DNA from: Mesorhizobium sp. AR02
GTDB taxonomy: Bacteria > Pseudomonadota > Alphaproteobacteria > Rhizobiales > Rhizobiaceae
NCBI RefSeq assembly: GCF_024746835.1
Contig: NZ_CP080531.1
Coordinates: 5,972,001-6,036,000, forward strand
Direction: 5' to 3'
Length of the DNA: 64,000 nt
A program made the position numbers and the translations under genes. This document shows, one piece after another, positions 7,070 through 57,680 of the stretch. Numbering within the stretch: the stretch's first letter is position 1; each line of letters begins with the position of its first letter. The notes below the pieces were generated by a model. It saw only the letters and a program-made list of their open reading frames with translations, did not search any database and had not been told where the DNA came from.

Positions 7070-8503
7070 ATGGACGCGCGGTCGGACAGGAACGCAATAC
7101 CGCTTGCGGTCGATCTCGACGGCACGCTGATCGCGACCGACCTGTTGTGGGAAGGCTTGTTCCTTCTCCTCAAGAAGAACCCGCTCTATATTTTCCTGGT
7201 GCCATTCTGGGCGGCCGGCGGGCCGGCACGGCTGAAGCAGGCGATCGCGCAGCGCATCGACATCGACCCCACGACGCTGCCCTATCGCGCGCCGCTGCTC
7301 GACCGGCTCCGTGCCGAGCACGGCGAAGGCCGCAAGATCGTGCTGGCGACCGGCACGCCGCGCAAATTCGCCGAAGCCATAGCCGGCCATCTCGGCATCT
7401 TCGACCGGGTGCTGGCCACCGACGGCTTCGACAATCTCACCTCCGGCAAGAAGCGCGCCTCGCTGATCTCAGCCTATGGCGATGGCGGTTTCGACTATGC
7501 CGGCAACAGCCGCCATGACCTTCAGGTCTTCGACGCCGCGCGCAATGCAATCGTTGTCGCGCCCGACCGTCATGCCGCGCGCTGGCAGGCGGCGCATGGC
7601 GCCGAGGCGATGCCGGCGCCGAAGCCGACCTTGCGGACCATCGTCAAGATGCTGCGCGTGCATCAGTGGCTGAAGAACTCGCTGATCGCCGTGCCGATGG
7701 TGCTGTCGCACGAGTACTTCAACACCAACATGATCTGGCAATGCCTGCTGGCGTTCATCTCGTTCAGCGCGGTGGCGTCGGCGATCTATATCCTCAACGA
7801 TTTCTTCGATCTCGCTCTCGACCGCAAGCACGCCACCAAACGCAACAGGCCGTTCGCCAGCGGCGCACTGTCGATCCCGTTCGGCCTCGGCGCGATCGCG
7901 GTGCTGCTGACGATCGGCATCGGCACCGGGCTCTTCCTGTCGCCCGAATTCCTGGCCGTGCTCGGTGGCTACATGGTCGTCACCACGGCCTATTCACTGT
8001 CGTTCAAGCGCATGCTTCTGGTCGACGTGCTGACGCTTGCCGGCCTCTATACGATCCGCGTGATCGCCGGTGCGGCCGCGACCGGCGTCGACGTCTCGTT
8101 CTGGCTGCTCGCCTTCTCGATCTTCTTCTTCCTGTCGCTGGCGCTGGTGAAGCGCTTCGTCGAACTGCGCACCACCGCGATTCCGCCGGGCGAACGCATC
8201 GCCGGCCGTGGCTATCGCACCGAGGACCAGGAGATCGTCGCCCAGGCCGGCATGGCCTCCGCCTTTTCCTCTGCACTGGTGCTGGCGCTCTACATGGACA
8301 GTGTCGCGGTGCGCGAACTCTATCCGCATCCGTGGCTGATCTGGCCGCTGCCGCCGATCGTGCTTTACCTCACCATGCGCGTCTGGATCCTGGCGCGCCG
8401 CGACGAGATGCATGACGACCCGGTCGTCTTCATCATCCGTGACTGGCGTAGCCAGATCGTGGTGCTGATCGGCGCCGTGCTGCTGGTCATCGGGGGCTGG
8501 TAG
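7070..8503 (+). CDS. HAD-UbiA fusion: polyprenyl-phosphate pentose-phosphate transferase-like
   Basis: A 477-residue two-domain protein. Residues 10-175 are a HAD phosphatase-like domain (VDLDGT at 14-19; GNSRHD near 145). Residues 185-477 are a UbiA prenyltransferase domain with about eight membrane segments and the Asp-rich motif NDFFDLALDRKHATKRNRP at 243-261, close to the motif of mycobacterial decaprenyl-phosphate phosphoribosyltransferase (Rv3806c). A plausible role is attaching phosphoribose to polyprenyl phosphate and removing the 5-phosphate with the HAD domain. It opens a seven-gene block, and the DprE1-like gene follows after 2 nt. The closest rhizobial relative I know is noeC of Azorhizobium, but orthology is not shown here. 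Confidence 0.85.
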   Translation: MDARSDRNAIPLAVDLDGTLIATDLLWEGLFLLLKKNPLYIFLVPFWAAGGPARLKQAIAQRIDIDPTTLPYRAPLLDRLRAEHGEGRKIVLATGTPRKFAEAIAGHLGIFDRVLATDGFDNLTSGKKRASLISAYGDGGFDYAGNSRHDLQVFDAARNAIVVAPDRHAARWQAAHGAEAMPAPKPTLRTIVKMLRVHQWLKNSLIAVPMVLSHEYFNTNMIWQCLLAFISFSAVASAIYILNDFFDLALDRKHATKRNRPFASGALSIPFGLGAIAVLLTIGIGTGLFLSPEFLAVLGGYMVVTTAYSLSFKRMLLVDVLTLAGLYTIRVIAGAAATGVDVSFWLLAFSIFFFLSLALVKRFVELRTTAIPPGERIAGRGYRTEDQEIVAQAGMASAFSSALVLALYMDSVAVRELYPHPWLIWPLPPIVLYLTMRVWILARRDEMHDDPVVFIIRDWRSQIVVLIGAVLLVIGGW

Positions 8504-8505
8504 GC

Positions 8506-9858
8506 ATGACCGTCGAGCGCTTCCAGAGCTTCGGCCTGGCCACGCCGCCTGCGGCAAGGGCGATTCGCGCCGACGATGCCATCGCGCTGCTGCAGAGCGG
8601 CCAGGCGAAGGATGCGTCGCTGTTGGCCTATGGCAACGGGCGGTCCTATGGCGATTCCTGCCAGAACCAGGCTGGCGCGGTCGTCGACATACGAACCCTG
8701 AACCGCATCCATACCTTCAACGCCGAGACCGGTGTCCTTGAAGCAGATGCCGGCGTGCTGTTGTCGGATATCATCGCGCACGCAGCACCCTACGGCTTCT
8801 TCCCGGCGGTTGTTCCGGGCACGCAATTCGTCACGCTCGGCGGCGCCATCGCCAATGACGTGCACGGTAAGAACCACCATCGGCGCGGCACGTTCGGCTG
8901 CCATGTCGAGAGCTTCACGCTGCTGCGCTCCGATGGAAAGACCTATCGCTGCTCGGCGACTGACAATCCGCGCTTGTTCAGGGCCACCATTGGCGGCATG
9001 GGCCTGACCGGCCTGATCCTGTCGGCCTCGATCCGGCTGATGCGGGTGCATTCGCTCGACATCGTCGAGAAGGCGACGCCGTTTCGTGATCTCGGCGAAT
9101 TCTTCGATCTGGCCGAGGCGGCGGACCAAGCCAATGAATATGCGGTCGCCTGGATCGACCAGCTCGCCGGCGGCCGCAACAGTGGCCGCGGGCTGCTGTT
9201 CACCGGCAACCACGCCGAGCATGGCTCGCATGCGGCCCTGCGCGCCGGCGGCAACCTCACGGTACCGTTCCAGCCGCCGTTCAATGTGCTCAATCGGCCG
9301 TTCCTGACCGCTTTCAATGCCGCCTATCGGTGGAAGAAAGGCCGGGCGACGATACCGCGCCACACCGGCTATCAAGGCTTCTTCTTTCCGCTCGACGGCG
9401 TGCGCGACTGGAACCGGCTTTATGGTCCCAATGGGCTGTTCCAGCACCAGAGCGTGGTGCCGGAAGAGGTCGCGCGTGCCGTGGTGCCGGAACTGCTCGC
9501 CGCTGCCCGGCGGGCTGGGCAGGGGTCTTTCCTCACCGTGCTGAAACGCTTCGGTTCCATCCGCTCACCGGCGCTGCTGTCGTTCCCGCGGCCGGGCTAC
9601 ACACTGACGCTGGACTTCCCCAACAAGGGAGCGGCGACGCTGGCCCTGCTTGGCGAACTCGACCGCATCACCATCGCGGCCGGCGGCGCGGTCAACCCTT
9701 ACAAGGATGCGCGCATGAGCGCTGCGACCTTCGCCGCCTCCTTTGCGGACTGGCCGAGGCTGGAAGCGCTGCGCGACCCTGCCTTCATGTCCGATTTCTG
9801 GGCGCGCACGGCTGGCAGCATCGACCTGCGGCGGCGCGGCGCCGAGGCTGCGGAATAG
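8506..9858 (+). CDS. DprE1-like FAD-dependent polyprenylphosphoryl-ribose oxidase
   Basis: A 450-residue VAO-type flavoenzyme. The FAD domain has GNGRSYGDSCQNQAG (43-57) and GGAIANDVHGKNHH (112-125), which closely track DprE1 of mycobacteria, including the active-site His of DVHGKNHH. Lys400 (NPYKDAR) appears to match the catalytic Lys418. At the place of the DprE1 cysteine attacked by benzothiazinones (GWNIC in mycobacteria) this protein has GYTLT, so Thr368 replaces Cys. Expected reaction: oxidation of the 2'-OH of a polyprenyl-phospho-pentose to a ketone. It is coupled to the UbiA gene upstream (2-nt gap). Confidence 0.88.
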   Translation: MTVERFQSFGLATPPAARAIRADDAIALLQSGQAKDASLLAYGNGRSYGDSCQNQAGAVVDIRTLNRIHTFNAETGVLEADAGVLLSDIIAHAAPYGFFPAVVPGTQFVTLGGAIANDVHGKNHHRRGTFGCHVESFTLLRSDGKTYRCSATDNPRLFRATIGGMGLTGLILSASIRLMRVHSLDIVEKATPFRDLGEFFDLAEAADQANEYAVAWIDQLAGGRNSGRGLLFTGNHAEHGSHAALRAGGNLTVPFQPPFNVLNRPFLTAFNAAYRWKKGRATIPRHTGYQGFFFPLDGVRDWNRLYGPNGLFQHQSVVPEEVARAVVPELLAAARRAGQGSFLTVLKRFGSIRSPALLSFPRPGYTLTLDFPNKGAATLALLGELDRITIAAGGAVNPYKDARMSAATFAASFADWPRLEALRDPAFMSDFWARTAGSIDLRRRGAEAAE

Positions 9859-9982
9859 ATAAAATTAGAATGAATCGTGGTTAGCGAATGATTAATTGCA
9901 AGGTTTACTCAAAACATTCTTGTGAGTTCACGAAATCTTTTCAGCTTTGTATTACTGGAAATCACGGGGTGGGTGCGCGGAC

Positions 9983-10417
9983 ATGAAATATATCGTCTTC
10001 ATTCTCTTTACGGTCATGACCAATGCCGCTGCGCAGCTGATGCTGAAGCAAGGCATGATGTCGCTTGGGCCGATCTCTTTCGAGGGCGTCAATCCGCTCG
10101 TCAAGCTGTTGCAGATCGTCTTCAGCCCCTGGGTGTTCCTCGGCCTCTGCACCTTCGTCATTTCCATGGCCTCGCACCTTTATGTGCTGTCCAAGGTCGA
10201 GCTTTCCTTCGCCTATCCCTTCCTCAGCCTCGCCTATGTCGCCGTCGCCATCTTCGCCTATTTCGTCTTTCGCGAGGACCTCAATGGCTGGCGCATCGCC
10301 GGCATCGCCTTCATCTGCGTCGGCACGGTGCTGATCGCGCAAAGTGGGCGAGGGCATGAGGACCAGACCGCTTCCATCACGTCCGACAAGATCCCTGCAA
10401 ACGAGACCGTTCGATGA
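9983..10417 (+). CDS. SMR/EamA-type small membrane transporter (ArnE-like flippase candidate)
   Basis: A 144-residue protein with four predicted transmembrane helices (about 2-20, 45-65, 75-95, 105-125). It resembles the small multidrug resistance fold and the ArnE/ArnF flippase subunits. In this block it is a candidate for moving the lipid-linked sugar across the inner membrane, the role proposed for Rv3789 (a different family) in mycobacteria. I start it at 9983 (MKYIVFIL), and its ATGA stop overlaps the next start. The preceding 124-nt gap is AT-rich for this window and could hold a promoter. Confidence 0.75.
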   Translation: MKYIVFILFTVMTNAAAQLMLKQGMMSLGPISFEGVNPLVKLLQIVFSPWVFLGLCTFVISMASHLYVLSKVELSFAYPFLSLAYVAVAIFAYFVFREDLNGWRIAGIAFICVGTVLIAQSGRGHEDQTASITSDKIPANETVR

Positions 10418-11421
10418 GACATGTGATTTTCGGCGGTGACGGCTTCGTCGGCCGCCACCTTGCCCCAAAGCTTGTGGCCGATGGCGAAGAAATTGTCGTC
10501 GCCGACATCGTCAAGAGCGACCTGGCGCATTATCGCAATGTCGGCTTCGTCCAATGCGACGTCACCGATCCGGCGTCGGTCGCCGCTGTCGGGCTCAAGG
10601 CCGACGACATGGTCTACAATCTCTCCGCCAAGATGCTGTCGCCGATCCAGGTGCGCGCCAAGCGGCACGATTTTTTCTTCCCGGTCAATTTCCATGGCAC
10701 CGAGCACATCATGCAGGCCATGGACAGGGCCGGCGCGCCCAGGCTCGTCCACTACACGACCGACATGATCTACGGCCACACGGTCACCCAGCCGATGACC
10801 GAGGAGCATCCGGTTGCGCCGCTCGGTGAATATGGCTGGTCGAAGCAGAAGACTGAGGAACTGGCGGCCGAATGGCGCAAGCGCGGCATGTCGATCTCGC
10901 TGTTTCGCCCGCGCCTGATCATCGGGCCCGGCCGGCTGGGCATATTGGAGAAACTGTTCAAGCTGATCGACTGGAATCTTCCCGTGCCGATGATCGGCTC
11001 GGGCAGAAACCCCTATCAGTTCATTTCTGTGTTCGATTGCGCGGAAGCTGCCCGCGCGGCCTGGAAGGCGGGTGTGCCCAACGAGGCCTATAATCTGGGT
11101 TCGCTCAATCCGCCGCCGGTGAAGAAATTGCTTGGCGACCTGATCCGTCATGCCGGTTCGAAATCGATCCTGCTGCCGACGCCCGGTTGGGCGGTCAAGC
11201 GCACGCTCGACCTGCTCGACCTCATGAACATGCCGATCATGGATCCGGAACAATATCTGATCGCCGACGAGGAGTGCGTGCTCGACGTGTCCAAGGCCGA
11301 ACGCCAGCTCGGCTGGGCGCCGCAATATCGCGACGAGGACATGCTGATCGCCGCCTACAGCGAGTACCGCGCCAAGAAGGCCGGGCACGCCGTTGCCACC
11401 AAACATGTGCCCGCCGAATAG
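10414..11421 (+). CDS. NAD-dependent epimerase/dehydratase (extended SDR)
   Basis: A 335-residue extended short-chain dehydrogenase. GGDGFVGRH near residues 6-14 is the nucleotide-binding motif, and YGWSK near 142-146 supplies the Tyr and Lys of the catalytic pair. It begins in a 4-nt overlap with the SMR gene, so it belongs to the same transcript. It could reduce or epimerise the keto-sugar made by the DprE1-like enzyme, taking the place of DprE2, or it could act on a nucleotide sugar. It is longer than DprE2 and of the extended, not classical, SDR type, so a straight DprE2 assignment is not justified. Confidence 0.85.
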   Translation: MRHVIFGGDGFVGRHLAPKLVADGEEIVVADIVKSDLAHYRNVGFVQCDVTDPASVAAVGLKADDMVYNLSAKMLSPIQVRAKRHDFFFPVNFHGTEHIMQAMDRAGAPRLVHYTTDMIYGHTVTQPMTEEHPVAPLGEYGWSKQKTEELAAEWRKRGMSISLFRPRLIIGPGRLGILEKLFKLIDWNLPVPMIGSGRNPYQFISVFDCAEAARAAWKAGVPNEAYNLGSLNPPPVKKLLGDLIRHAGSKSILLPTPGWAVKRTLDLLDLMNMPIMDPEQYLIADEECVLDVSKAERQLGWAPQYRDEDMLIAAYSEYRAKKAGHAVATKHVPAE

Positions 11422-11482
11422 CGGGCCCGCCAAACAGTTTATGGCGCACGACGCTGGTCGTTAGCGCGGACAGGAGATTGAA

Positions 11483-12955
11483 ATGACCGTCATGGCCAAG
11501 CCCGAACAGACGAATGCGCGCACCCTGGTCAGCGCGCCGGCGCTGTCGCCCGCCACCATCGCCAAGCCCGATTTGATCAGCGTCGAGCAGGCCAAGGCGA
11601 TGGATGTCGCCCGCATGACCGATCTGTTCAAGGCGCATCTCAATCCCGGCCAGCTGCATTTCATGAAGCTGCTCGGCTTCCACAAGATCAAGATCGAGCG
11701 TGCCGAAGGCATGTTCTACATCGACCAGAACGGCCGCAAGATCCTCGATTTCTTCGGCGGCTTCGGTTCGCTGGCCTTCGGCCACAACCATCCGCGCATT
11801 CTCGAAGCGCGCAGAAAATTCCAGGAAGAAAAGCGCCAGGAAATCGCCATCGCCTTCATGTCGCAATATGCGGCGGCGCTTGCGCACAACATCGCCAAAT
11901 GCTCGCCCGGCGATCTCGACATGGTGTTTTTGGGTTCGTCCGGCTCGGAGGCGATGGAAGCGGCGGTGAAGCTCGCCGAGCGCGCAGCCGGACCGAAGCG
12001 GCCGAAAATCGTCTATGCCGAGAATTCCTTCCACGGCAAGACCAAGGGCGTTCTTGGCATCACCGACGGCCAGCTTTATCGCGCTGATTTCAAGATGGCC
12101 GAGAACACGGTGCGCATTCCCTTCGGCGACATCGAGGCGGTCGAGCGCCTGTTCCGCAGCGATCCGGAGGTCGGCGTCATCGTGCTGGAAACCATCCAGG
12201 GCGGCGGTGGCATCATCCAGGCACCAGCCGAATACTGGCAGAAGCTGCGTGGGCTGTGCGACCAGTATGGCGTGCTGTGGGTGGCCGACGAAGTGCAGTG
12301 CGGCTACGGCCGCTCGGGCCGCTTCTATGCCTTCGAGCATTATGGCGTGGTTCCCGACGTGACCGCGCTGGCGAAGTCGCTCGGCGGTGGCAAGGCGGCG
12401 GTCGGCGCGATGATCGCCAAACGCGACGTCTACATGAAGGCCTATGGCACGCCGAAGACAGCGATGATCCATGCCATGGCAACCTTCGGCGGCATGGGCG
12501 AGGCCTGCGTCACCGCGATCGAAGGCCTCAATGTGCTCTATGACGAGGGGCTGATCGACAACGCCGCCGTCACCGGCGACTATTTGCTGCAGCGCTTGCA
12601 GGCGCTCAAGGACAAGTATCCCAAGATCATCAAGGATGTGCGCGGCAAAGGCTTTATGGTCGGCCTCGAGTTCCACGACTTCTCGCAGACCTTGCCGATG
12701 GTGCTGCGCCCGATCGTCAGTGTGCTCGACGACAAGCTGAAGGGCTCGCTGTCCGGTTTCGTCGGCGCGCTGCTCCTGCGCGACTACGACGTGCTCGTCG
12801 CCTTCACAGAATACAACCGCAACGTCATCCGGCTCGAGCCGCCGTTGATCTGCCAGCGCGAGCATGTCGACCGCTTCGTCGATGCCTTCGACAGCCTGCT
12901 GTCGCGCGGCATCGTGTCGATCGTGAAGGATTTCGTCAAAAGCCAGGTTCGCTGA
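11483..12955 (+). CDS. Class III PLP-dependent aminotransferase
   Basis: A 490-residue fold-type I aminotransferase. The markers are FLGSSGSEAMEAAVKLAERA, WVADEVQCGYGRSG and TALAKSLGGGKAAVG, whose Lys should bind PLP. An RBS, AGGAG at 11472-11476, fixes the start at 11483. The family transfers amino groups from omega-amines or acts on keto groups; a few members aminate sugars. Its place between a sugar-oxidising flavoenzyme/SDR pair and a GT-C-like protein suggests an amino-sugar or amino-containing headgroup, which is an inference only. The next gene follows after 8 nt. Confidence 0.85.
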   Translation: MTVMAKPEQTNARTLVSAPALSPATIAKPDLISVEQAKAMDVARMTDLFKAHLNPGQLHFMKLLGFHKIKIERAEGMFYIDQNGRKILDFFGGFGSLAFGHNHPRILEARRKFQEEKRQEIAIAFMSQYAAALAHNIAKCSPGDLDMVFLGSSGSEAMEAAVKLAERAAGPKRPKIVYAENSFHGKTKGVLGITDGQLYRADFKMAENTVRIPFGDIEAVERLFRSDPEVGVIVLETIQGGGGIIQAPAEYWQKLRGLCDQYGVLWVADEVQCGYGRSGRFYAFEHYGVVPDVTALAKSLGGGKAAVGAMIAKRDVYMKAYGTPKTAMIHAMATFGGMGEACVTAIEGLNVLYDEGLIDNAAVTGDYLLQRLQALKDKYPKIIKDVRGKGFMVGLEFHDFSQTLPMVLRPIVSVLDDKLKGSLSGFVGALLLRDYDVLVAFTEYNRNVIRLEPPLICQREHVDRFVDAFDSLLSRGIVSIVKDFVKSQVR

Positions 12956-12963
12956 GTTCAACA

Positions 12964-14196
12964 ATGCTGACCAAGTCTCCCGCTGCGAAAAACCCGCTCG
13001 ACCGGCTCGCCGAGGCCGGTCTGGCGTGGGGCGAGGGGACCTATGCCCGGTTGGCGGCACCGATCGGCGCGGCGGCCTTCGCGCTCTACATCCTCTTGAC
13101 CGCGTTCACGGCTTGGGTGATGCCGGACGCCAATTGGGACATGCTGCCCTATCTCGCAATATCAGAGGAAGGCAGCTATCCCGATGCGCAGGCGCTGCAT
13201 GACTATGCCTACAGCACCGTCAAATCAGGCGTGTCGGCCGGCGACTACAATGCGCTGACCGACGATGGCGGCGGCTTCCGCAGCCACATGACGGAGAATG
13301 CCGCCGATTTCCATTCGCTGCTCGGCATGTACCGGATCAAGTTCCTCTATGCCGAGATCCTGTCGGCGCTGAGCGCGGTGATGTCGCCGGTCGAGGCGAT
13401 GCGCCTGGTGCAAGTGTTTTCGGTGCTCTTGTTCGGCGCGATCGCGCTGCTCTGGTTGCGCAGGGAAAAGGCTTTGGCCTTGGCGCCGGTGGTTGGTGCG
13501 GTGCTGATCATGGCCGATTTCGGCGACGCGGCGCGGGCTTCGACACCGGACCTGCTCACGTCGGCATTGCTGCTTGGCGGGCTCTATGCCTATGTCAGAG
13601 GCCGCGAGGTGGCGACGGCGATCCTGCTCTTCCTCGCCTTCATGGTGCGGCCGGACAATATCGTTTTCCTTGCCATATTCGCGGTGCTGCTGGTTGTCTT
13701 CCGGCAGAAGGCATGGGGTGCGCTGGCCGGCTTTGCCGCATCCTTCGTCGCCTATTTCGCCATTTCGCACTGGGCGCATCATCCCGGCTGGTGGCCGCAT
13801 CTGTGGTTCTCCAGCATCGAGCAGCACTACAATATGGACGGCTTCGAGCCGGCGTTCTCGGTCACCGCCTATCTCAGGGCGTTCGCCACCTCGCTGCTGC
13901 GCGCCGTCAACCTGAACAGCTGGGTCGGCGTTTCGGTGCTGGCGATGGCCGGCTGGTTCGCCGCCGGCCGCGCCGGCTTCCGCCTCGATCGCCGTGCCGG
14001 CATCCTGTTTGCGGCGCTGGTGCTCGGCGCGCTGGCGAAGTTCACGGTCTTCCCGATCCACGACACGCGCATCTATTTCCCCCATCTGATCCCGCCCTTC
14101 CTGCTGCTGGCGCCGCCGTTCATGGCGCTGTGGGCGGCCGTGTCGCGCGGCCAGCATCGCGCCGCCTTGCACGTCATTCCCGGAGACAAGCCATGA
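12964..14196 (+). CDS. Polytopic membrane protein, GT-C glycosyltransferase-like
   Basis: A 410-residue protein with around ten hydrophobic segments. After the first helix there is a long loop with acidic motifs (MPDANWDMLPYL near residues 53-64), a pattern seen in GT-C enzymes that use polyprenyl-phosphate sugars. Further into the loop region lie an RIKFLY block and several His/Trp-rich stretches (HWAHHPGWWPHLW). I do not recognise a named family. In this operon it could transfer the lipid-linked pentose to an acceptor on the periplasmic side. Its stop overlaps the next start by 4 nt (ATGA). Confidence 0.65.
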   Translation: MLTKSPAAKNPLDRLAEAGLAWGEGTYARLAAPIGAAAFALYILLTAFTAWVMPDANWDMLPYLAISEEGSYPDAQALHDYAYSTVKSGVSAGDYNALTDDGGGFRSHMTENAADFHSLLGMYRIKFLYAEILSALSAVMSPVEAMRLVQVFSVLLFGAIALLWLRREKALALAPVVGAVLIMADFGDAARASTPDLLTSALLLGGLYAYVRGREVATAILLFLAFMVRPDNIVFLAIFAVLLVVFRQKAWGALAGFAASFVAYFAISHWAHHPGWWPHLWFSSIEQHYNMDGFEPAFSVTAYLRAFATSLLRAVNLNSWVGVSVLAMAGWFAAGRAGFRLDRRAGILFAALVLGALAKFTVFPIHDTRIYFPHLIPPFLLLAPPFMALWAAVSRGQHRAALHVIPGDKP

Positions 14197-14951
14197 GTTC
14201 GCTATCCAGCCTGGCGCGCATCGCCTTGTCGCTCGGCCTTCCCTCTGGCCTGCTCGATCGCGGGCCGTCGCTGCGCGGCACGAAATTCCTGGCCAAGGCG
14301 GCGCTGAAGGCCCGCTTCAGTGGGGTAGGGCAGCCGTTCCAGATGGTCAATGTCGGTGCCTGCGACGGCGCGCTGTTCGACGATGTGACGCCCTGGCTGC
14401 ACAAGATTTCCGGCGCCCGCGCCATGCTGGTCGAGCCGATCCCGTACAATCAGAAGCGGCTGCGCGCCAACTATCCCGACACGGACCGCTTCATCATCGA
14501 GCCTGTGGCGGTCACCAGGACCAAGGGCACGATCACCGTCCACACCTTCGATGCCGCCGCCCTTGAGGCCGGCACGCTGCCGATCGAGTTCATCGGTTGC
14601 TCCTCAGTCACCGACACCAATCTGATGTCGGGCAAGAATGCCTGGGGCGAGGCCGATGCCAACTTCAACAAATTCGCGCCGCATCTGAAGGACATCGAAG
14701 TGCCGTCGGAGACACTGCAGACGCTGCTCGACCGCAACGGCATCACCCATATCGATGCCTTCCTCGTCGATTGCGAAGGTGCGGACTGGATCGTCTTCGA
14801 GCAGCTCGACCTCAAGCGCTATCGTCCGGGCATGATCAAGGTCGAGGTCGGCGCGCTGCCGGCAGCCGAGATCGGCCAGGTCGTGGTCAAGCTGAAGACG
14901 GCGGGCTACCAGGTCGGCTTCCAGGCCGAGGATGTCTGGGCGTTTGCCTGA
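14193..14951 (+). CDS. FkbM family methyltransferase
   Basis: A 252-residue SAM-dependent methyltransferase of the FkbM type. It has MVNVGACDGALFDDV (motif I, near 51-65), AMLVEPIPYNQKRL, and IDAFLVDCEGADW near the C-terminal half, all hallmarks of the family. FkbM enzymes commonly O-methylate sugars in glycolipids and polysaccharides. The ATG lies in a 4-nt overlap with the membrane glycosyltransferase-like gene, so it should act on the same product. It is the last gene of the 7070-14951 block. Confidence 0.88.
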   Translation: MSSLSSLARIALSLGLPSGLLDRGPSLRGTKFLAKAALKARFSGVGQPFQMVNVGACDGALFDDVTPWLHKISGARAMLVEPIPYNQKRLRANYPDTDRFIIEPVAVTRTKGTITVHTFDAAALEAGTLPIEFIGCSSVTDTNLMSGKNAWGEADANFNKFAPHLKDIEVPSETLQTLLDRNGITHIDAFLVDCEGADWIVFEQLDLKRYRPGMIKVEVGALPAAEIGQVVVKLKTAGYQVGFQAEDVWAFA

Positions 14952-55257: not shown

Positions 55258-56433
55258 ATGGTGGCAACCGGCTCTAGCGAAGGCGAAGCGGGAACGCAGT
55301 GGGCAGCGCTCGCTGGCGTCACTGCCGCACTTGCCATGTTCGGCGCCGCGCAAGGGCTGAGCTCGCCGCTGTTCACGCTTCTGATGCAGAAGCAAGGCAT
55401 GTCGCCCGGGCTGATCGGCCTGTCGGCGGCGATGATGCCTCTCGGGCTCATCCTGTCGGCATCGTTCGTGCCGGCGGCGGTGCGGATGGTCGGTGCGCGC
55501 AACCTGGCGGTCGGCTGCTCGCTGATCGGAGCTCTGTGCTTCCTGGCGATCGGCTATCTGCAGAACTGGGTGGCCTGGTACCTCATCCGCTTCATCATCG
55601 GCGTCGTCATCAACCCGCTCTATATCCTTGGCGAGGTCTGGGCACTGTCGCTGGCGCCGCCGTCGCGGCGCGGCCGGGTGATGGGGGTGTTCAACACGCT
55701 GATGGGTGCCGGCTATGCGGCGGGGCCCTTCACCTTGACCCTGGTCGGCACATCGGGCTGGGCACCCTTCAGCGTCGGTGTCGGCGGCTTCATGCTTTGC
55801 GCGGTCATTTTGCGCCTTGTCTCGTCAAAACTCACCGGCTTCGAGGATGACGGTCAGCCTGCCGGCAGCTTTATCGGCTTTGCCCGGCTGGCGCCGGCGC
55901 TGCTGCTGGCCGTGCTGGTGTCGGCCGCCGTCCAGCAAAGCACCTATGCGCTGGTCCCGGTCTTCGGTGCCGGCTATGGCCTACCGGAAGCGATCCTCGC
56001 CGCGCTGGTGATGGCGCTGTCGCTCGGCAACATCCTGCTGCAGATCCCGCTCGGCCTGCTCGCGGAGCGGTTCGGCGGCCGCCCGATGATCGTGGCCTGC
56101 GCGGTGGCGACGGCAATCTGCGCGGCGCTGCTGCCGCTGCTGATCACGACGCCGCTGATCTGGGGCGTGCTGCTGGTGATGGGCGCGGTCGGCTACGGCG
56201 TCTATACGATGGCGCTGGTCGAACTCGGCAGTCGGTTCAAGGGCACGCTGCTTGTCACCGGCAATGCGGCCTTCGCCTTGCTGTGGGGCGTTGGCGGCAT
56301 TGTCGGCCCGCCGGGTGCCGGCCTGTTGATGCAAGGCATCGGTCCGCTGGGGCTGCCCGTGGTGATCACCGGTCTCGACGCGGTTCTGGTTGCCTTCGCT
56401 TTGTACCGCTCCTGGCAACGTCGAGCCTCCTGA
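55258..56433 (+). CDS. MFS transporter, copy 1
   Basis: A 391-residue major facilitator with 12 predicted helices. LSLAPPSRRGRVMGVFNTLM near 140 has the conserved loop 4-5-type RRGR motif. It starts at ATG 55258 and is divergent from MttB gene 2. The next gene is a close relative in tandem. Substrate unknown; betaine or another methylated compound is plausible from the location. Confidence 0.85.
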   Translation: MVATGSSEGEAGTQWAALAGVTAALAMFGAAQGLSSPLFTLLMQKQGMSPGLIGLSAAMMPLGLILSASFVPAAVRMVGARNLAVGCSLIGALCFLAIGYLQNWVAWYLIRFIIGVVINPLYILGEVWALSLAPPSRRGRVMGVFNTLMGAGYAAGPFTLTLVGTSGWAPFSVGVGGFMLCAVILRLVSSKLTGFEDDGQPAGSFIGFARLAPALLLAVLVSAAVQQSTYALVPVFGAGYGLPEAILAALVMALSLGNILLQIPLGLLAERFGGRPMIVACAVATAICAALLPLLITTPLIWGVLLVMGAVGYGVYTMALVELGSRFKGTLLVTGNAAFALLWGVGGIVGPPGAGLLMQGIGPLGLPVVITGLDAVLVAFALYRSWQRRAS

Positions 56434-56525
56434 CATGCATCTGGCTGGAGCAAGCGCTTTCCACCGGCGGGGCTTACCGCTGTTTGGCCGAACCGCTAAT
56501 CCTGCCGCACACCAACGGTAGGACC

Positions 56526-57680
56526 ATGGCCGCAGCGGAAACTGGCGAAGGGATGCAATGGGCAGCGATCACCGGTGTGATCGCGACCGTCTCGGTGTTT
56601 GCCATCGCCCAGGGGCTGTCCTATCCGCTGTTGAGCTTCATCCTGCAGCGCCAGGGCGTCTCGCCGGCAATGATCGGCCTGTCGGCGGCCATGACGCCGA
56701 TCGGCTTCATCGTCTCGTCGCCACTGATCCCGGGGCTGGCGCGGCGGTTCGGGGCAGGGCGCACGGCGCTGACTTGTGCCGCGCTCTCGGCTGTCGTGCT
56801 GGCGCTCATCGGCTGGACGCAGAATGTCTATCTCTGGTTTCCGCTGCGCTTCCTGATCGGCGTGGTGACCAATCCGCTCTATGTCTTGAGCGAAATCTGG
56901 GTGATCGCACTGGCGCCGCCGGCCCGGCGCGGCCGCATCATGGGCGTCTATTCGACGATCATCTCGGCCGGATTTGCGACCGGGCCGCTTTGCCTGCTTG
57001 CCGTCGGCACGCAGGGGTGGCCGCCCTTCCTCGTCGGTATCTGCGCCTTCGTGCTGTGCGGCATCTGCCTGGCGTCGGTGCTGCCGCGCCTGCCGAAGGT
57101 CGACGAGGCCGGTCATCAGGTTTCCGTCCTGGGCTTCGTGCCGATGGCGTGGCTGCTCTTGTTCGCCGTCATCGTGGCCGCGGGTTTCGAGCAAGGCGCG
57201 CTGGCTTTGCTGCCGGTCTATGGCACCCATCACGGCATTGCGGAAATCCGCATGTCGGCGCTGCTGTCGATGATGATCGCCGGCAACATCGCCATGCAGG
57301 TGCCGCTCGGCCTGCTGGCGGAGAGGCTGACCGCGCGCTTGGTGCGGCTTGCCTGTGTTTCCTTGACGGCACTTGGATGTGTCCTGCTGCCGCTTCTCAT
57401 CGAAACGCCGCTGATCTGGCCGATGATTTTCGTCTGGGGCGCGGTTTCCTACGGCATCTACACGATGTCGATCATCGAACTCGGCGAGCGCTTCACCGGC
57501 TCGACACTGGTCGCCGGCAATGCCGCCTTCTCGCTGATGTGGGGCGTCGGTGGCATTGCCGTGCCGCCGCTGGCCGGCACCGCCATGGATATACTGGGCG
57601 CAAGAGGCCTGCCGATCACGCTTGGCCTGATGTGCCTGGCGCTGGCGGTGGCGAGCGTCGCCGGTCGCGGGAAGGCCTGA
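56526..57680 (+). CDS. MFS transporter, copy 2
   Basis: A 384-residue MFS carrier with the same layout as copy 1; both have MQWAAITG/TQWAALAG-like starts and the APPARRGRIMGVYSTI block. This points to tandem duplication followed by divergence. Twelve helices predicted. The gap to copy 1 is 92 bases. Confidence 0.85.
   Translation: MAAAETGEGMQWAAITGVIATVSVFAIAQGLSYPLLSFILQRQGVSPAMIGLSAAMTPIGFIVSSPLIPGLARRFGAGRTALTCAALSAVVLALIGWTQNVYLWFPLRFLIGVVTNPLYVLSEIWVIALAPPARRGRIMGVYSTIISAGFATGPLCLLAVGTQGWPPFLVGICAFVLCGICLASVLPRLPKVDEAGHQVSVLGFVPMAWLLLFAVIVAAGFEQGALALLPVYGTHHGIAEIRMSALLSMMIAGNIAMQVPLGLLAERLTARLVRLACVSLTALGCVLLPLLIETPLIWPMIFVWGAVSYGIYTMSIIELGERFTGSTLVAGNAAFSLMWGVGGIAVPPLAGTAMDILGARGLPITLGLMCLALAVASVAGRGKA

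What the first reader, a model, noticed from the sequence alone, without database searches (positions are those of the whole stretch)
7070..14951. Seven-gene lipid-linked pentose (or aminopentose) pathway related to mycobacterial DPA synthesis
A HAD-UbiA transferase and a DprE1-like oxidase are adjacent, as needed for polyprenyl-phospho-arabinose in mycobacteria. Here they sit in a block with a four-helix flippase candidate, an SDR, an aminotransferase, a GT-C-like protein and FkbM. Gene spacing is tight (2 nt, 4-nt overlaps, 8 nt) in most joints. Such a full set could make and export a decorated arabinofuranose-like glycan in a rhizobium. Rhizobial noe genes for Nod-factor arabinosylation are known; a chromosomal version without nod genes suggests a different acceptor.
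Basis: partly seen in the sequence, partly recalled or inferred. Interest (0 to 1): 0.8.

Follow-up and report, generated by a model that had tools for sequence, protein, structure and literature searches.

The report
Lipid-linked amino-pentose sugar pathway
A gene block in a nitrogen-fixing soil bacterium resembles the route by which tuberculosis bacteria make a lipid-carried five-carbon sugar, but an aminotransferase stands where the last reducing enzyme should be, so it probably makes an amino-sugar carrier that I found no description of.

Summary
The seven genes are real, at the stated places, in Mesorhizobium. The core (HAD-UbiA phosphoribosyltransferase, small flippase, GT-C transferase) is a 'three-component' pentofuranose system as described for Citrobacter in 2024. 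Added are a DprE1-like oxidase (B), an extended SDR (D), a class III aminotransferase (E) and FkbM.

The new point is what follows the oxidase. Of 297 Hyphomicrobiales genomes, 44 have B; 14 of these have E, 29 a DprE2-like reductase, none both, one neither. No genome without B has E. In another alphaproteobacterial order (L215), C-D-E stands beside an oxidase from the DprE2 side of the tree. In 74 of 74 related loci with enough sequence, A to E are intact, while the transferase varies and FkbM is optional.

Best reading: the keto-ribose lipid made by B is transaminated instead of reduced, giving a polyprenyl-phosphate 2-amino-2-deoxypentofuranose, usually also changed by D, then flipped and passed to an unknown acceptor. 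All chemistry is inferred. Variant of a known kind; interest 0.62.

The parts
7070..8503 (+). A: polyprenyl-phosphate phosphoribosyltransferase (UbiA) fused to an N-terminal HAD phosphatase
   Evidence: NF006088 642 bits; solved decaprenyl-phosphate phosphoribosyltransferase 8j8j E 5.8e-25; DLDGT at residue 15, NDFFDLALD at 243-251, RFVE at 362, the spacing of the motifs tested in Citrobacter ORF15
8506..9858 (+). B: DprE1-like FAD oxidase, proposed C2 oxidation of the lipid-linked ribose
   Evidence: NF053785 330 bits, cut-off 500; solved DprE1 E 5e-68; residues aligned with Y60, H132, K134, Q334, Q336, K367, K418 invariant in 40 of 40 rows
9983..10417 (+). C: ArnF/ArnE-like four-helix-type membrane protein, proposed flippase
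   Evidence: EamA 32.1 bits over cut-off 28.2; ArnF 51 bits, cut-off 99; alignment of 15; no solved structure matched by sequence
10414..11421 (+). D: extended SDR, proposed C3 epimerase of the lipid-linked sugar
   Evidence: Epimerase Pfam; GalE-like solved structures E 1.5e-18; GGDGFVG, TTDM, Y140 and K144 conserved in all 15 aligned rows apart from the usual neighbours
11483..12955 (+). E: class III aminotransferase, proposed to aminate the product of B
   Evidence: Aminotran_3 284 bits; PigE C-terminal part E 4.5e-73, putrescine aminotransferase E 5e-66; A268-D269-E270 and K298 invariant in 16 rows; present only with B
12964..14196 (+). F: GT-C fold glycosyltransferase candidate
14193..14951 (+). 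G: FkbM-family methyltransferase, optional
   Evidence: Methyltransf_21 56 bits over cut-off 22.7; present in 56 of 74 loci

Best explanation
The block makes and uses a polyprenyl-phosphate-linked amino-pentofuranose. [quoted passage not shown] B oxidises C2 of the ribose to the 2-keto sugar, as DprE1 does. E transaminates this ketone where DprE2 would reduce it, giving a 2-amino-2-deoxy-pentofuranose on the lipid. D, usually but not always present, most likely inverts C3. C flips the lipid-sugar to the periplasm, F transfers the sugar to an acceptor that differs between species, and G methylates in many strains. Supported here by sequence: the families, motif residues, gene association, and mutual exclusion of E and DprE2. 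Inferred: every reaction, the carbon aminated, the stereochemistry, the roles of C and D, and the acceptor.
For: E lies wholly inside the B set: 14 of 14 E genomes have B, 0 of 253 genomes without B have E (297 genomes). Among the 44 B genomes 14 have E, 29 a DprE2-like gene, 0 both, 1 (G206) neither. The 14 belong to 8 genera and 8 families by the tool's labels, and families f1, f2, f11 and f44 (in f44 one genus, g72) hold both types. The coupling survives rearrangement: G274 has A-B at one place and C-D-E at another, L149 and L156 have the order A-x-C-D-E-B. In G499 (L215) C, D and E are 68, 64 and 69% identical to the window's while B is 40%, UbiA stands alone, B falls in the DprE2-type clade (100/100), and no DprE2 is found at 1e-20. 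A to E are in 74 of 74 loci. Four oxidase positions separate the types, two of them beside the residue aligned with K418. D is missing from 2 of 14 E genomes, so E, not D, is the constant partner of B.
Against: No chemistry is shown. Class III aminotransferases often act on aldehydes (recalled), and E's nearest solved relatives act on PigE and putrescine-type substrates. The main E group of oxidases is one branch (95/70), so most of the association could go back to one event; the Fisher values ignore kinship. L215 sits on a long branch. L116 and L215 use E with DprE2-type pocket residues. G043 (L151) keeps A-B-C-D without E and has a DprE2-like gene elsewhere. ArnF-like flippases are not specific for amino sugars: Citrobacter ORF14 is ArnE-like and serves ribose (PMC11127046), and C-like genes occur beside A without B in 4 of 73 regions. 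The 'DprE2-like' query is itself below the DprE2 cut-off (186 of 250 bits).
Confidence: 0.57

Rival explanations
1. Ordinary arabinofuranose pathway: D takes the place of DprE2 and reduces the ketone, and E acts later, for example on another carbon of the finished sugar or on the acceptor.
For: D is in 12 of 14 E genomes and in 0 of 19 DprE2-type genomes tested, so it too replaces DprE2 in most. The family is made of NAD-dependent oxidoreductases.
Against: D is missing in G161 and G183, which have B and E and no DprE2. A D-family gene (44%) stands beside A and a C-like flippase in L170, in a genome with no B or E match, so D does not need a ketone from B. D is GalE-like, unlike DprE2.
Confidence: 0.16
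2. An amino-pentose is made, but at another carbon: D oxidises or dehydrates at C3 (or C5 is oxidised) and E aminates there, with B serving a separate step.
For: D and E are adjacent in the window and travel together in G274 and L215. Class III enzymes often prefer aldehydes (recalled).
Against: E occurs with B but without D in 2 of 14 genomes; D occurs with A and B but without E in G043. The strict link is E with B.
Confidence: 0.17
3. E has a function outside this pathway and is linked to B by common descent and clustering only.
For: The profile library names E only as a general class III aminotransferase; most E-type oxidases form one branch.
Against: E is never found without B in 297 genomes, stays through reordering and splitting of the locus, and joins a distant oxidase in G499.
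Confidence: 0.06

Closest known systems
Three-component pentofuranose side-chain systems, Citrobacter youngae O1/O2 (PMC11127046)
   Same: HAD-UbiA synthase, ArnE-like flippase, GT-C transferase, SDR epimerase in O2; DprE1/E2 in arabinofuranose versions
   Different: Here an aminotransferase and no DprE2 follow the oxidase; the GT-C was not compared with GT136; FkbM is added
Mycobacterial decaprenyl-phosphoryl-arabinose synthesis (Rv3806c, Rv3807c, DprE1, DprE2, Rv3789)
   Same: UbiA phosphoribosyltransferase and DprE1-like oxidase
   Different: HAD domain fused to UbiA; no DprE2; ArnF-like instead of GtrA-like flippase (GtrA is seen in 13 of 19 DprE2-type loci)
Rhizobial Nod-factor arabinosylation, noeCHOP/noeN (PMC5080398, passages read)
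   Same: Rhizobial use of DPA-type genes
   Different: noe genes are reported as DPA orthologues with a separate phosphatase NoeN and transferase NoeP; this block is a different set
ArnBCDEFT pathway for lipid A 4-amino-4-deoxy-L-arabinose (recalled, apart from ArnE/F profiles and ArnT structure)
   Same: Lipid-carried amino-pentose, ArnF-like flippase, ArnT-like fold of F
   Different: Arn makes the amino sugar on UDP before the lipid; here it would be made on the lipid from PRPP
PigE and putrescine aminotransferases
   Same: Nearest class III relatives of E
   Different: E scores 349 bits against the PigE cut-off of 850 and 294 against 612 for putrescine aminotransferase

Membership tests
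Three-component pentofuranose system (PMC11127046) | Polyprenyl-phosphate phosphoribosyltransferase with PRP (HAD) domain | tested here: met
   NF006088 over cut-off; DLDGT, NDxxDxxxD and RxxE present (compared with section 7)
Three-component pentofuranose system (PMC11127046) | Small four-helix flippase in the locus | tested here: met
   EamA over cut-off; ArnF/ArnE best named profiles but below cut-off; transport itself not testable
Three-component pentofuranose system (PMC11127046) | GT-C fold transferase in the locus | tested here: met
Three-component pentofuranose system (PMC11127046) | GT136 membership of the transferase | not tested
   ORF12 sequence not at hand; the paper describes GT136 as founded by ORF12
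DPA (arabinofuranose donor) pathway | DprE1 oxidase | tested here: inconclusive
   Best family is DprE1 and key aligned residues are kept, but 330 bits is below the cut-off of 500
DPA (arabinofuranose donor) pathway | DprE2 reductase | tested here: not met
   No match at 1e-15 in the own genome; D is a GalE-like SDR
Nod-factor arabinosylation (noe) | DPA gene set with NoeP transferase among nod genes | not tested
   NoeP and nod genes were not searched; the DPA set already lacks DprE2
Class III aminotransferase | Pfam Aminotran_3 domain with PLP lysine and aspartate | tested here: met
   PF00202 284 bits; K298 and D269 invariant in 16 rows; roles of these residues recalled
Lipid-linked amino-pentofuranose synthesis (proposed) | Transamination of the DprE1 product | not testable with these tools
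   Needs enzyme assay

The most novel reading that the evidence does not exclude
A branch of lipid-linked pentose metabolism not described in what I could search: the DprE1 ketone is transaminated on the lipid carrier, so PRPP feeds a polyprenyl-phosphate 2-amino-2-deoxypentofuranose donor, made without a nucleotide sugar, exported by an ArnF-like flippase and used by interchangeable GT-C enzymes in Mesorhizobium and scattered Alphaproteobacteria.
Probability: 0.55. Interest if true: 0.78.

Novelty: new variant of a known kind. Interest (0 to 1): 0.62.

Why it matters
If true, oxidation by DprE1 followed by reduction is only one use of the keto-ribose lipid; the same intermediate is a branch point to an amino sugar. 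It predicts a new sugar donor and a new, possibly charged, monosaccharide in Mesorhizobium envelopes (E is in 119 of 146 genomes of the genus sample). It also gives a simple marker, aminotransferase or DprE2 beside DprE1, for predicting glycan composition from genomes, and a direct in vitro test, since the Citrobacter assay exists.

Tried and rejected
Rejected or dropped: longest-frame gene calls, which took antisense shadow frames and were replaced by codon-scored calls. These still misplaced A in L130 and missed B in L151; genome searches and tblastn recovered them. The AlphaFold model of E (mean pLDDT 63.9) was too weak to search with. The 26% 'E' in L120 is not E: its genome has no match at 1e-70. 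Naming D as HpnA was rejected (62.5 bits, cut-off 367.65). A direct Nod-factor role was not adopted (no DprE2), though nod genes were not searched. Promoters and RNA families were not examined. Not tested: kinship of E with the hopanoid enzyme HpnO, and of D with Citrobacter ORF13, whose sequence was not at hand.

Literature: searches for an aminotransferase with DprE1 or a lipid-linked amino-pentofuranose and for Mesorhizobium surface sugars and noe genes listed no such paper. Only listings and beginnings of abstracts were seen, only open-licence papers are held, and each listing was cut short at the number asked for where more papers matched, so this does not show that none is in print.
Full report
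WHAT IS THERE. By profile: A, HAD-UbiA (NF006088, 642 bits, cut-off 351); B, DprE1-like (NF053785, 330 bits, cut-off 500); C, ArnF/ArnE-like EamA protein; D, extended SDR; E, class III aminotransferase; F, GT87 just at the cut-off; G, FkbM. Joints are +2, +124, -4, +61, +8 and -4 nt. GC content across 6-16 kb is 0.61-0.64, within the window's range of 0.585-0.653. Of 80 related loci kept, 77 are titled Mesorhizobium. The window lies at 5.97 Mb of contig C2 of an 8.9 Mb genome. A gene list of the window shows no other gene that I recognise as glycan-related beside the block, but the neighbours were not scanned against profiles.

WHAT IS DIFFERENT: E WHERE DprE2 SHOULD BE. Gene A is over its cut-off in 73 of 297 genomes of the order sample. 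I fetched 73 regions from the 72 genomes other than the own. In one search, 32 regions have A and B close together: 19 also have a DprE2-like SDR of about 250 residues, 12 have E, one (L118) has neither nearby. In whole-genome searches of these 32 genomes and the own (33), E is in 14 and DprE2-like in 19, none with both or neither; L118's genome has C-D-E at another place. Since those genomes were chosen for A and B, I counted again over all 297: B (E <= 1e-50) in 44, E (E <= 1e-100) in 14, all 14 inside the 44. Of the other 30, 29 have DprE2-like: 19 at 1e-30 and 10 of 11 at 1e-20; G206 has neither. Of 16 E genomes (the 14, G499 and G849) none has DprE2-like at 1e-20; four have only weak SDR matches between 1e-16 and 1e-15. 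DprE2 was not searched in the 253 genomes without B. Fisher p values of 3e-13 and 1e-10 treat genomes as independent, which they are not. The DprE2-like query scores 186 bits against the DprE2 cut-off of 250 and 367 for an unnamed SDR family whose cut-off of 267 it passes, so 'DprE2-like' rests on that and on its place beside B.

HOW MANY EVENTS. In a tree of 40 oxidases the 21 E-type rows (14 plus 7 Mesorhizobium or near relatives that I added) are one side of a branch (95/70). With three more rows, L215 from G499 (same class, not same order) falls in the DprE2-type clade (100/100), although its C, D and E are 68, 64 and 69% identical to the window's; its UbiA stands alone and passes the decaprenyl-phosphate phosphoribosyltransferase cut-off (242 of 234 bits), and no DprE2 is found at 1e-20. 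In that tree the basal E row L116 is placed with weak support. One clade of all E rows plus G043 is rejected (p-AU 3e-43). L215 is a long branch. I read this as at least two associations of a C-D-E cassette with an oxidase. E is rare elsewhere: 2 of 337 genomes of the class sample, own included, and 5 of 349 of the phylum sample, all of this genus. In the genus sample it is in 119 of 146. The protein database gave 2026 proteins at E <= 1e-120 among 7998 candidates scored, a capped number.

RESIDUES. In 40 of 40 oxidases the residues aligned with Y60, H132, K134, Q334, Q336, K367 and K418 of the mycobacterial enzyme are kept (numbering from the alignment, roles recalled). Four positions separate the types: window 344 (T in 20 of 21 E rows, A in 18 of 19 others), 368, aligned with C387 (T in 20 of 21, A in 19 of 19), 397 (N in 20 of 21, Y in 19 of 19) and 399 (Y in 20 of 21, A in 19 of 19); the last two flank the aligned K418. 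The E exception is L116; L215 also has the DprE2-type letters, so the change is not needed for using E.

D, THE FLIPPASE AND THE TRANSFERASES. D is in 12 of 14 E genomes and 0 of 19 DprE2-type genomes; G161 and G183 lack it. G043 (L151) has A-B-C-D without E and a DprE2-like gene elsewhere. L170 (G230) has A, a C-like flippase and a D-family SDR (44%) in a genome without B or E matches, like the Citrobacter O2 set for xylofuranose. I therefore take D as a C3 epimerase; this is inference from one locus and a paper. C is in 11 of the 12 E regions and 0 of the 19 DprE2 regions, where a GtrA-like gene is seen in 13. Nineteen candidate transferases from these loci fall into six groups by blastp, and one group is shared by E-type and DprE2-type loci; several have no or only weak Pfam matches. 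In 74 loci with at least 8 kb after A (6 of 80 dropped), A to E are in 74, F in 72 (three of them about 36% identical), G in 56.

MECHANISM. PRPP to polyprenyl-P-ribose (A), C2 oxidation (B), transamination (E), C3 inversion in most (D), flipping (C), periplasmic transfer (F), methylation in many (G). The order of D and E, the amino donor, the stereochemistry and the acceptor are unknown. The weakest step is the substrate of E: the gene evidence says that E takes the place of DprE2, not which bond it makes.

COMPARISON AND NOVELTY. The block meets the tested parts of the three-component kind and fails the DPA definition at DprE2. Nod-factor arabinosylation (PMC5080398, passages read) uses orthologues of the DPA enzymes and is a different set. 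PMC12826051 (passages read) added nothing specific. The searches listed under Tried and rejected showed no paper on an aminotransferase in a DprE1 pathway. I file it as a new variant of a known kind.

Noticed in passing
L131-L134, L138, L140-L144 and others: 25 of 73 regions have HAD-UbiA beside a GtrA-like gene and no DprE1, DprE2 or E nearby: perhaps plain ribofuranose donor systems with a GtrA flippase.
   Followed up: no
L170:7489-10341: HAD-UbiA, C-like flippase and a D-family SDR (44%) without DprE1 in the genome: looks like the Citrobacter O2 xylofuranose set.
   Followed up: partly
L217:9718-11067: G206 has a DprE1-like gene of the E-type branch with no A, E or DprE2-like match in the genome: an orphan or another use.
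   Followed up: partly
L151:7711-11937 and L218:9477-10229: G043 keeps A-B-C-D but lacks E and has a DprE2-like gene at another place: perhaps a switch back.
   Followed up: partly
L165 (G044): The HAD-UbiA match in G044 is listed with two in-frame TAG codons.
   Followed up: no
L175 and L177 (G277): G277 has two HAD-UbiA matches over the cut-off and a third UbiA match below it beside a DprE1 and DprE2-like pair on contig C3.
   Followed up: no
window 55336-57680: Two adjacent frames of 365 and 375 residues with similar starts look like a tandem transporter pair.
   Followed up: no
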